A DNA stretch of 64,000 nt from Undibacterium sp. Jales W-56 (GTDB taxonomy: Bacteria; Pseudomonadota; Gammaproteobacteria; Burkholderiales; Burkholderiaceae_D): the NCBI RefSeq assembly GCF_025548535.1, contig NZ_JAJLQW010000003.1:496001-560000 (forward strand). Direction: 5' to 3'. The notes beneath the pieces are model-generated. The model saw only the letters and a program-made list of their open reading frames with translations. It was not told the DNA's origin and made no database searches. Both the position numbers and the translations under genes were made by a program. Shown piece by piece: positions 59,306 to 62,856 of this stretch; within the stretch, counting starts at the first letter, position 1, and the number at the start of each line of letters is the position of its first letter.

Positions 59306-60087
59306 GCTGCGACCTCCGCAGATTCGGCGGCTACCCCGAGATAGGCTTCCTGTACTACTTTCGATTGCATGACCTCGGCAGGTTTGCCGTCAGCGACCAG
59401 TTGTCCCTGGTTCAGCACGATGATGCGATCTGCCAGGCGTTCTACCACGTCCATTTTGTGTTCTACCAGGAGTATGGTTTTATCGCGTTGTTGCTGGATA
59501 GCGGCGATCAGATCGAGGATCACGGGTGCTTCGTCATGGCTCATGCCTGCGGTCGGTTCATCGAACATGAATACGCTGGGTTGCATTGCCAGCAGCAGGC
59601 CGACTTCCAGTTTGCGCTGATCGCCGTGGGGCAATTCGGCGGCACGCATATCGCGTCGTTGAATCAGTGCGATGCGGGTCAGAATCTCGTCGGCTTCCCG
59701 GATCCAGCCGGCGTGCGAGAACCAGGTCGAGAGCAATTGCAGTCCGTATTTTTCTCGGCTTTGCACGCGTGCCTGTATCGCCAGCCGGACATTTTCCATG
59801 ACCGTTAACCGGGGGAATAAATTGGTCAGCTGGAAGGCGCGCCCCAGGCCGCGCTGGGCGCGGCTGGCGGCATTTTGTCTGCTCAGATCCTGACCGTGCA
59901 GCAGCACCTGGCCACCGGTGATCGGCAACTGGCCCGAGATCAGATTGAAATAGGTAGTTTTGCCGGCGCCGTTCGGTCCGACGATGGCTGTCAGGGTGCC
60001 GGGCGAGAAGGCACAGGATACCTGGTTGACCGCGATATGCCCGCCGAAATTGACCGTCAGCGCGCGCGTTTCTAGCGAAATGCTCAT
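59302..60087 (-). CDS. livG: ABC transporter ATP-binding protein (LivG)
   Basis: This 261-residue ATPase has Walker A GPNGAGKTT. LivG-specific extension FQLTNLFPRLTVMENVRLA follows. The signature region is unusual: ELPHGDQRKLEVGL replaces the canonical LSGGQ-like loop (LivG members often have LPYGxQRRLE, so this is family-typical). Walker B is PSVFMFDEPTAGMS. It precedes livF by a four-base overlap, and follows the binding-protein gene by 143 bp. Confidence 0.92.
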   Translation of the reverse strand: MSISLETRALTVNFGGHIAVNQVSCAFSPGTLTAIVGPNGAGKTTYFNLISGQLPITGGQVLLHGQDLSRQNAASRAQRGLGRAFQLTNLFPRLTVMENVRLAIQARVQSREKYGLQLLSTWFSHAGWIREADEILTRIALIQRRDMRAAELPHGDQRKLEVGLLLAMQPSVFMFDEPTAGMSHDEAPVILDLIAAIQQQRDKTILLVEHKMDVVERLADRIIVLNQGQLVADGKPAEVMQSKVVQEAYLGVAAESAEVAA

Positions 60088-60230
60088 GGAGACCTTTTGA
60101 TGGATTCAACATCGGCTCGAATTGACCGTCTTGGCGAAAGCCTGGCTGCTGCAGATGTACCACATGACGCGCTGCCAGATTGCCGTCGGATGGTCTCTGC
60201 GCAGCGCGGTGTGTTCAGCTCGCCGATGGA

Positions 60231-61418
60231 TCAACGCTTGTTCTTGATCGGAACAGCCATCTCTTCTATCTTCAGTTCACGCACCAGTTCCGGCACGCCC
60301 CAGGCAAACGCAGGATCGACTTTGATCTTGAAGTGATACATCGATTGCAGCGCCTGATGATCTTCTTTGCGGAAGATCATTTTGCCTTTCGGCGTCTGGA
60401 ATTCCATGCCTTCCATGGTCTTGATCAGATTCTCGGTGCCGGTGTCTTTGCCCGCTCTGGTCAAGGCTTCCACCGCTGCAATTCCTGCCGTCATGCCGCC
60501 CGCGGTGAAAAAATCAGGCGGTGTTTTGTACTGCTTGTAGTGATTCGCCACCAGCCATTCGTTGACCGGATTTTTCGGAATGCCGAAGTAGTAATACGTC
60601 GCGCCTTCCATGCCGGGGAAGTTTTTATAGGCCGCCATGGCTGGCAGGATATTGCCGCCGGTAGCGATCTCTATGCCGTAACGCTTCAGATCCAGATCGG
60701 CGATTTTGAAAGGATTGCCTGCGCCTGCCCAGAGTACAAAAATGACTTTGCGACCCGGCTGGTCTTTGAGTTTATCGATCAGGCGTTGCGCACCCGCAGT
60801 GAAATCGGTGGTGGTGGTCGGCAGGTATTCTTCATGTACCAGTTTTGCGCCTTTGCCTGACAGCGATTGTTTGAAGGCTTTGACGCCATCGCGGCCAAAC
60901 GCATAATCCTGCGCCAAGGTGGCAATCACCACGCCCGGCTTGTCCAGCGCGACCGCATTCGAAATCGCATCCTGCGATGAATTGCGACCGGTGCGGAAGA
61001 TGTAGCGATTCCACTTGTCGCCGGTGATCGAGTCGGCCACGGCGGGTTCGACGATCAGCAATTTTTTGTACTCTTCGGCGATCGGCAGCATCGCCAGTGC
61101 GACGCCCGATGAGGTGGGGCCGATCGCCAGATCGACCTTGTCATCGCCATAGGCCTGCGCCAGCAACGATTTACCCATGTCGGGTTTGCCCTGGCTGTCT
61201 TTTTCAATCACGACGATCTTATTGCCATTGACCATCATGCTGCCCTTGGTCGCGTAATCCAGGCCCATCATCAAGCCGATCTGGGTTTGTTTGGCATAGG
61301 CTTCGAGCGGACCGGTTTTGTCATACACATGGGCAATCTTGATATCTTTGGCGTGTGCATGGAGGCCGGAGGCGCTCAGGGTGAGCAGGGTGAGCGCGCT
61401 AAGGGCAAAACGTTTCAT
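60231..61418 (-). CDS. ABC transporter substrate-binding protein (Peripla_BP_6/LivK type)
   Basis: This 395-residue periplasmic binding protein starts at ATG 61418 after GGAG. A signal peptide (about 1-21, ending HA-KD) precedes a type I binding fold: KIAHVYDKTGPLEAYAKQ, then LAIGPTSSGVALAM. The family binds branched-chain amino acids but also urea, amides, aromatic acids and other ligands, and the pocket cannot be read here. It is the first gene of the liv operon. Its ribosome site lies in a predicted helix. Confidence 0.92.
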   Translation of the reverse strand: MKRFALSALTLLTLSASGLHAHAKDIKIAHVYDKTGPLEAYAKQTQIGLMMGLDYATKGSMMVNGNKIVVIEKDSQGKPDMGKSLLAQAYGDDKVDLAIGPTSSGVALAMLPIAEEYKKLLIVEPAVADSITGDKWNRYIFRTGRNSSQDAISNAVALDKPGVVIATLAQDYAFGRDGVKAFKQSLSGKGAKLVHEEYLPTTTTDFTAGAQRLIDKLKDQPGRKVIFVLWAGAGNPFKIADLDLKRYGIEIATGGNILPAMAAYKNFPGMEGATYYYFGIPKNPVNEWLVANHYKQYKTPPDFFTAGGMTAGIAAVEALTRAGKDTGTENLIKTMEGMEFQTPKGKMIFRKEDHQALQSMYHFKIKVDPAFAWGVPELVRELKIEEMAVPIKNKR

Positions 61419-61566
61419 GGAGTCTCCTGTTTGGCTAGTAATTTTTGTGGTTATCACCATCGACGGCGACCTGGAGACTCCGCGCTCATGACTGGGTAGC
61501 GGTTGGACGCAGTTCAGTCATGAGCGCGTGTTGCGGGGGATGATGCTTATCCCCGGTCTCCTGTTG
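61419..61566 (-). promoter_or_regulatory. Structured 5' leader of the liv operon, ribosome site pairing
   Basis: Read as mRNA (minus strand). A 6-bp stem ATCCCC/GGGGAT sits at 61554-61536. A perfect 14-bp inverted repeat follows (61528-61515 with 61494-61481, arm CGCGCTCATGACTG). Then GGAGTCTCC (61481-61473) is fully complementary to GGAGACTCC (61427-61419), which contains the ribosome binding site directly before the ATG. AACAGGAGAC occurs both at the ribosome site and at 61565-61555. This looks like a translational cis-regulatory RNA; no known riboswitch class is recognised. Confidence 0.55.
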
Positions 61567-61721
61567 CTCTTATCTGTAAGAAGACTCTGCCAATCACTAA
61601 AGGCGCCGCAGAATTTCCTTAGCTTGTTTTGTAGTTTTCGATACTATATTTGGCAACTGGCAAAAACAATACAGTAGAAATACCTGTATCGCCGGTTTTT
61701 TGCCAATGGGACGAGGGCGCA

Positions 61722-61734
61722 GCGTAAGTCCTGC
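61722..61734 (+). repeat. Orphan MITE-end-like motif
   Basis: GCGTAAGTCCTGC matches the right terminal repeat of the MITE-like family, but no core is found nearby. It may be a remnant or chance. The remainder of 61567-61899 is AT-rich and holds nothing else I can support. Confidence 0.3.
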
Positions 61735-61899
61735 TCGAATGGCCAGGATGCAGCGCTCGATGAATTTTAGGCAGTAAGAGTATCTTGGGGAGTATGCTTA
61801 AAAACCATGCTTTATCCGCAGATTCTATAAGCGGATGATAAATATACTGCCAGGTAGTATATTTTTCATGCAAGTGGATGAATCAAAAAGCAGTTAATG

Positions 61900-62856
61900 T
61901 CAGCTAAAGTTTTGGCCGGCTTCTATCGCAAAGCCTTTGAGGAATTCGGCGACGGCTAAACGCTTGCCGCCTGGCTTTTGCAGTTCCGTCAGGCGCAGGC
62001 TGTGAGTGCCGCAGGCGACGATGATGCCATCCTGCGCATTGGCGCTGAGTACGCTGCCGGGTGCTTTGCCAGAGCTGAGGTCGAGGGCCTGGGCATGCCA
62101 GATTTTGACGGTAGTGCCGCCGACATTCGCATGCGCGCCGGGGAAAGGATTGAAGGCGCGGATTTTTCTGGCGAGCTGTTCGGCGCTTGCATTGAAATCC
62201 AGAGCCGCCTCGTCTTTGCTGATTTTGGCGGCATAGCTAACGCCTTGCTCTGGCTGTACCGTGGCAGGTACCGGACCCTGCTGCATCTGGCGCAAAGTCT
62301 GCACGATCATGGCGCCGCCGAGTTGCGCCAGCTTGTCGTGCAGACTGCCGGTGGTGTCGTCACCGGCAATCGCGATGCTTTGCATCTGCAGCATAGGGCC
62401 GGTGTCCAGACCTTCTTCCATTTGCATGATGGTGATGCCGGTCTGCCGGTCGCCATTTTCGATCGCCCGATGGATAGGCGCAGCGCCACGCCAGCGTGGC
62501 AGCAGAGAGCCGTGAATATTGATGCAGCCGAGTGGCGGAATATCGAGTGCCGAGCGCGGCAAGATCAGTCCGTAAGCCGCGACCACCATCACATCATGCG
62601 GCGTGCTGCGCAGCACCTCATGCGCTTCTTGTGCGATCTCAGGATATTTTCCGTCCAGCTTTAAAGAGACGGGTTGCGCAACCGGAATGCCGTGTTGCAA
62701 GGCGAATTGCTTGACTGCCGAAGCGTGCAATTGCATCCCCCGGCCGGCCGGCCGGTCCGGCTGCGTCAGCACCAGCGGAATCTCGAAACCCGCGGCATGG
62801 ATCGCGTGCAAAGCGACCGCGGCGAATTCAGGGGTGCCGGCGAAGATCACGCGCAT
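61900..62856 (-). CDS. fmt: Methionyl-tRNA formyltransferase
   Basis: This 318-residue enzyme formylates initiator methionyl-tRNA with 10-formyl-THF. The motif [14 protein letters not shown] holds the catalytic Asn/His/Asp region, and [14 protein letters not shown] belongs to the conserved core. The C-terminal OB-like domain contains the FNPFPGAHA segment. Its start overlaps the def stop by one base (TGATG), the standard def-fmt arrangement. Confidence 0.95.

What the first reader, a model, noticed from the sequence alone, without database searches (positions are those of the whole stretch)
61419..61566. Liv operon leader with helix that hides the ribosome binding site
GGAGTCTCC (61473-61481) is a perfect complement of the GGAGACTCC that forms the ribosome site before the binding-protein ATG, and it directly adjoins a perfect 14-bp inverted repeat. 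Three stems within 150 bases, one masking the start, is a typical translational switch layout. No known class was recognised.
Basis: partly seen in the sequence, partly recalled or inferred. Interest (0 to 1): 0.7.

Follow-up and report, generated by a model that had tools for sequence, protein, structure and literature searches.

The report
Species-specific leader hiding a ribosome site
A bacterial transporter gene's messenger RNA starts with a very stable fold that can hide its ribosome landing site and has a built-in rival pairing that could free it, but the close relative lacks it, so it may be a newly arisen switch or just an evolutionary accident.

Summary
On the minus strand of an Undibacterium genome, between fmt and the binding-protein gene of a liv-like ABC operon, the leader holds a perfect 14-bp hairpin directly followed by GGAGUCUCC, a perfect 9-nt complement of the Shine-Dalgarno (SD) segment GGAGACUCC that abuts the ATG. 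Copy and SD compete; folding predicts SD free early in transcription, then hidden. No shuffle of 3000 reached two of the three features. An operator shared with a PAS-LuxR/CoA-transferase locus places the promoter near 61640-61690, so transcripts should carry all stems.

Conservation fails. The only close orthologue among 43 genus genomes (U. terreum, about 90% protein identity) keeps promoter and leader length but not the anti-SD or long hairpin. None of 80 orthologue leaders combines these features; no Rfam family reaches its threshold. Covariation cannot be tested. SD occlusion as such is common.

Best reading: a recent, species-specific SD-sequestering leader, possibly made by template switching, that lowers or times translation. 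Ligand sensing is unsupported; a non-functional relic is nearly as likely.

The parts
61667..61683 (-). operator-like element GTATTTCTACTGTATTG of the inferred promoter
   Evidence: only exact site in the genome; 1-mismatch sites lie between a PAS-LuxR gene and a CoA-transferase gene and upstream of a second HAAT-like operon; inside the block conserved in U. terreum and found in another genus
61643..61648 (-). TATAGT, inferred -10 element; transcription start inferred near 61635
   Evidence: inside the block conserved with U. terreum; -10 and start site are inference
61556..61565 (-). strand A: AACAGGAGAC, exact copy of the SD segment, alternative partner of the anti-SD
   Evidence: 10-nt direct repeat; pairs the anti-SD in folds before the SD is made
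61536..61554 (-). hairpin 1, GGGGAU / AUCCCC
   Evidence: folds
61481..61528 (-). hairpin 2, perfect 14-bp inverted repeat, 20-nt loop, no U-tract
   Evidence: arms not a dispersed repeat
61473..61481 (-). strand B: anti-SD GGAGUCUCC
61453..61470 (-). small hairpin inside the loop of the SD helix (contains G-U pairs)
61419..61427 (-). strand C: SD segment GGAGACUCC, directly before the ATG
60231..61418 (-). periplasmic binding protein (Peripla_BP_6), first gene of the ABC operon
   Evidence: Pfam 2.3e-50

Best explanation
The leader is a lineage-specific, cis-acting translation-control structure. Transcription starts near 61635 at a promoter with the operator of a PAS-LuxR-type regulator. As the RNA is made, hairpins 1 and 2 form and strand A (AACAGGAGAC) pairs with the anti-SD (B), giving a three-way junction that leaves the coming SD free. 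Once the SD (C) is out, the longer B-C helix is favoured and hides the SD. Fresh mRNA can thus be loaded by ribosomes, and unloaded mRNA closes. The A and B strands probably arose recently from the SD by short-range duplication and template switching. Shown: the repeats, their non-random presence, predicted energies, lack of conservation. Inferred: promoter, order of folding, any effect on translation, origin. A ligand is not claimed.
For: Exact repeats and z -5.98. 0 of 3000 shuffles reach two of the three features. Folding of growing transcripts: anti-SD paired to A at 0.83 before the SD is made; 0.46 (A) versus 0.42 (SD) when the SD is just out; 0.99 with the SD after about 40 coding bases. 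Energies -98.4 (SD hidden) and -92.9 (SD free), direct-path saddle -68.2, so the free form may be long-lived. Promoter block conserved upstream of all stems. Both copied pieces are rare in the genome: AACAGGAGAC 8 sites (reversed control 2), GGAGACTCC 3 sites (reversed control 4), two of each here.
Against: U. terreum keeps promoter and leader length (210 vs 230 nt from TATAGT to ATG) but its longest SD complement is 5 nt and its longest perfect inverted repeat 7 nt. No orthologue of 80 has GGAGAC-GTCTCC-GGAGAC; but a looser test, any 6-mer of the last 18 bases with a complement and an upstream copy, is met by 5 of 80 with other letters, so a short three-strand relation can come by chance. The fixed pattern occurs in 1 of 43 genus genomes, here, and its reversed control in 2 of 43. 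SD occlusion is not exceptional: 25 of 165 control genes have an SD at least as paired, 11 of 165 at least as paired upstream; 4 of 80 orthologues fall to 0.15 or less SD unpaired, against 0.17 here. In the -150..+30 fragment the SD is 17-20% unpaired, less tight than in the full leader. A hidden SD is odd for a binding protein, usually the most abundant subunit (recalled).
Confidence: 0.43

Rival explanations
1. Mutational relic: template switching and duplication copied SD pieces into a leader under little constraint. The fold lowers translation somewhat or not at all and no switch is selected.
For: Not conserved in the nearest orthologue, and the set of features is in none of 80; A and B are direct and inverted copies of the SD; template switching can make perfect hairpins in one event (PMC8794818, abstract and opening text seen); comparable SD occlusion occurs in many control genes; loose three-strand relations occur in 5 of 80 orthologues.
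Against: The SD helix and hairpins 1 and 2 are perfect, with no decay; B sits directly on hairpin 2; the copy A lies where it can compete. No ancestral sequence is available to show the event.
Confidence: 0.4
2. Ligand-sensing riboswitch: A-B closure around hairpins 1 and 2 is an aptamer, and ligand binding frees the SD (ON switch).
For: Three-way junction whose closing 3' strand is the anti-SD; the add adenine riboswitch likewise hides its SD without ligand (PMC8342710, passages seen).
Against: No Rfam family reaches its threshold; no conserved core in the relatives compared; the 14-bp perfect helix looks like scaffold.
Confidence: 0.06
3. Leader-peptide control: overlapping 11-codon frames MTELRPTATQS and MSAESPGRRRW (stop/start ATGA) run through hairpin 2 and the anti-SD, and ribosome stalling opens the SD.
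For: The second frame covers the anti-SD; its stop codon begins 38 nt before the ATG. U. terreum has a different, 29-codon frame whose stop overlaps the ATG.
Against: No SD before either frame here, no run of regulatory codons, short frames are common by chance, and the start and stop come from the palindromic TCATGA in the arms. The U. terreum frame is unrelated in sequence by eye.
Confidence: 0.04
4. RNA thermometer.
For: SD in a helix.
Against: Predicted SD:anti-SD pairing 0.998 at 4 C and still 0.953 at 60 C.
Confidence: 0.02
5. The 14-bp dyad is mainly a protein-binding site or an RNase III / stability element, and the SD match is incidental.
For: Long perfect dyad without U-tract. Sites like the arm at up to 2 mismatches: 50 against 30 for the reversed control in the genome, and 7 against 2.79 expected in the window.
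Against: Besides the two arms only one site with 1 mismatch in the genome; the SD copies are left unexplained.
Confidence: 0.05

Closest known systems
Translational riboswitches of the add (adenine) type
   Same: SD hidden by a cis strand that an upstream junction can take over
   Different: no known aptamer, no conservation, no ligand evidence
SD-sequestering leaders and co-transcriptional kinetic mRNA switches in general (recalled)
   Same: fold order would decide whether ribosomes load
   Different: the three strands here are near-copies of one another; seen in one species so far
GcvB control of amino-acid uptake genes in E. coli (PMC11878033: start of abstract and two passages; livJ/livK as direct targets is recalled)
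   Same: post-transcriptional control of amino-acid uptake genes
   Different: trans-acting small RNA; none was looked for here
Template-switch-made hairpins (PMC8794818)
   Same: perfect reverse-complement copies near their source
   Different: no ancestral state here to prove the event

Membership tests
Translational riboswitch | SD covered by a cis anti-SD | tested here: met
   (in silico)
Translational riboswitch | mutually exclusive alternative pairing that frees the SD | tested here: met
   energies -98.4 and -92.9 (in silico)
Translational riboswitch | aptamer conserved across species with covariation | tested here: not met
   conservation tested and absent; covariation itself could not be counted
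Translational riboswitch | match to a described class | tested here: not met
   Rfam, (best E 5.4, below threshold)
Translational riboswitch | ligand binding | not testable with these tools
   needs in-line probing
RNA thermometer | SD opens in the physiological temperature range | tested here: not met
   (in silico)
Leader-peptide attenuator | leader frame with SD and regulatory codons | tested here: not met
Intrinsic terminator / transcription attenuator | GC hairpin followed by U-tract | tested here: not met
   none of 4 terminator-like sites in 60000-62500 is on the minus strand (loops of 3-8 only); bases after hairpin 2 are not a U-tract
Dispersed repeat or mobile hairpin | further copies in the genome or plasmids | tested here: not met

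The most novel reading that the evidence does not exclude
A three-strand RNA switch born within one species from its own ribosome site: one direct copy (A) and one inverted copy (B) of the SD, made by duplication and template switching, turned a plain leader into a timed, load-or-lock translation switch while the promoter stayed conserved. It would be a riboregulator caught near its origin.
Probability: 0.15. Interest if true: 0.75.

Novelty: new member of a known kind. Interest (0 to 1): 0.35.

Why it matters
If functional, it is a clear, easily tested example of a cis-acting switch that exists in one species while its nearest relative with the gene, having the same promoter and gene order, lacks it. 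That would let the origin of a riboregulator be studied directly. If not functional, it is a warning that striking leader folds can be mutational by-products.

Tried and rejected
Rejected: terminator; dispersed repeat; Rfam families; thermometer; leader peptide. A 34/40 match of 61522-61561 in another Undibacterium genome lies inside an rpoN-like coding frame (identified by eye); I take it as chance. A weak gapped similarity of strand A plus hairpin 1 to U. terreum (score 14 vs 10.5 +/- 1.8, 27 of 500 shuffles as good) is too weak to claim homology; with stricter scoring the best local match lay elsewhere (14 of 500 shuffles as good). A DNA search of 392 family genomes (drawn from a larger group, mostly 2 candidates scored per genome) matched 7: own, U. 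terreum (promoter block only), the rpoN match, the operator region in three genomes of another genus, and one short match not studied. Covariation could not be tested for lack of homologous leaders, so no covariance model was built; no protein structure prediction was run. Papers: searches gave listings; passages seen; abstract and opening text; one search found none. One paper in the library holds both 'Undibacterium' and 'riboswitch' (listing only; its title is on biofilms and c-di-GMP).

Limits: start codons were chosen by a simple rule and a few may be wrong (for instance L055, L102), and that output was cut in the middle. The leader counts use 80 orthologues above 70% identity, one with only 50 leader bases (L082); the 20 genus homologues at 59-62% identity were left out, and loci stored in reverse were skipped (U. 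terreum enters through L034). The control gene set (166 genes, 165 without this one) comes from 400 kb of one contig plus the window, with simple gene calling. Genome-wide operator counts at up to 2 mismatches (9) hardly exceed the reversed control (7); only the positions of the three best sites carry weight.

Full report
Setting. The window lies in a genome of 4,185,614 bases (G000). On the minus strand the order is def (by eye), fmt, a 481-base gap (61419-61899), then a periplasmic binding protein (Peripla_BP_6), two ABC ATPases and permeases (one permease was scanned). The proteins are of the branched-chain/urea (HAAT) type, but none of the four scanned reaches the cut-off of a Liv or urea NCBIfam model shown, so 'liv' is only a type label.

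Observation. The 9-nt SD complement and the 14-bp hairpin are exact and at the stated places. The fold of 61401-61580 is -63.8 kcal/mol, z -5.98. The same stems appear in a longer fold, z -4.78. A further exact repeat, AACAGGAGAC at 61556-61565 and 61422-61431, gives the anti-SD a second partner. That 10-mer has 8 sites in the genome, two of them here. GGAGACTCC has 3, two of them here. In 3000 shuffles none reached two of the three features. The pattern GGAGAC-N60..90-GTCTCC-N30..60-GGAGAC occurs in 1 of 43 genus genomes, here; the reversed control pattern in 2 of 43, so the short cores alone prove nothing and the weight lies on the full-length repeats.

Transcription. A block at 61635-61683 is conserved in U. 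terreum (blastn 92% over 49 bases, E 5e-13; alignment). Its core GTATTTCTACTGTATTG is the only exact site of the operator pattern in the genome. The two sites with one mismatch lie between a PAS-GerE (LuxR-type) regulator gene and a CoA-transferase gene, and upstream of a second operon that by eye encodes HAAT-type ATPases. In three genomes of another genus of the family the element sits between a regulator 71% identical to the one here and CoA-transferase genes recognised by eye. I infer a regulon, a -10 at 61643-61648 and a start near 61635, hence a leader of about 217 nt with all stems. The start has not been mapped.

Mechanism. Folding of growing transcripts gives an early form in which strand A pairs the anti-SD around hairpins 1 and 2, and a late form in which the SD pairs the anti-SD. 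The late form is 5.5 kcal/mol more stable; the direct path between them passes -68.2, an upper bound of about 25 kcal/mol on the barrier from the early form. Temperature from 4 to 60 C hardly matters. This fits a load-early, lock-late leader. It is thermodynamic prediction, not measurement.

Evidence against a conserved switch. Within the genus 2 of 43 genomes have this gene at 90% identity or more, own genome included. U. terreum has the same upstream neighbours and a similar leader length, but its leader aligns no better than chance over its whole length (global score -6.0; 91 of 300 shuffles as good), its longest SD complement is 5 nt and its longest perfect inverted repeat 7 nt. Among 80 orthologues one has a 9-nt SD complement (L066), but in the fold its SD is hardly bound upstream (0.02); one has a perfect inverted repeat of 14 or more (L072, 15 nt); none has both. 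With any 6-mer allowed, 5 of 80 show a copy-complement-SD relation with other letters. Among 165 other genes of this genome, 25 have an SD at least as paired. So the full set of features is exceptional but hidden SDs are not.

Verdict. A real, non-random, so far species-specific leader structure. Function in translation is plausible (0.43), a relic nearly as likely (0.40), a ligand riboswitch unlikely (0.06). It is filed as a new member of a known kind, SD-sequestering leaders, and not as a riboswitch, because conservation and class match were tested and not met.

Noticed in passing
window 61667-61683; L144 and L145 near 1501-1517; L116-L118 near 1500-1550: Shared operator GTANTTCTACNGTATTG links a PAS-LuxR regulator, a CoA-transferase locus and two HAAT-type ABC operons: an apparent small regulon, with the regulator/CoA-transferase site also present in another genus of the family.
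   Followed up: partly
upstream of the start in many Acidovorax, Curvibacter and Hydrogenophaga loci (for example L080, L092, L100, L041, L072): By eye, orthologues there show TGGCAC..TGCA sigma-54-like promoter sequences (motif recalled) and TGTCTGAAATTCAGACA-type dyads, so the same transporter seems to be under quite different transcription control.
   Followed up: no
L035, L040, L046, L053, L060, 111-167 bases before the start: Four Noviherbaspirillum loci and one MAG carry GTAGTTTTACTAC-like palindromes that resemble the operator (the pattern also hit U. terreum and the distant homologue L030).
   Followed up: partly
L003 about 1501-1541: 34 of 40 bases of the leader (61522-61561) match inside an rpoN-like coding frame of another Undibacterium; probably chance.
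   Followed up: partly
window 61454-61521, minus strand: Two overlapping 11-codon frames (ATGA stop/start) run through hairpin 2 and the anti-SD, without an SD.
   Followed up: partly
L034, 89 bases before the start: In U. terreum a 29-codon frame ends with a stop that overlaps the ATG of the binding-protein gene; possible translational coupling or chance.
   Followed up: no
whole genus: The operon's close orthologue is patchy: 2 of 43 Undibacterium genomes, with 20 others carrying a 59-62% homologue.
   Followed up: no
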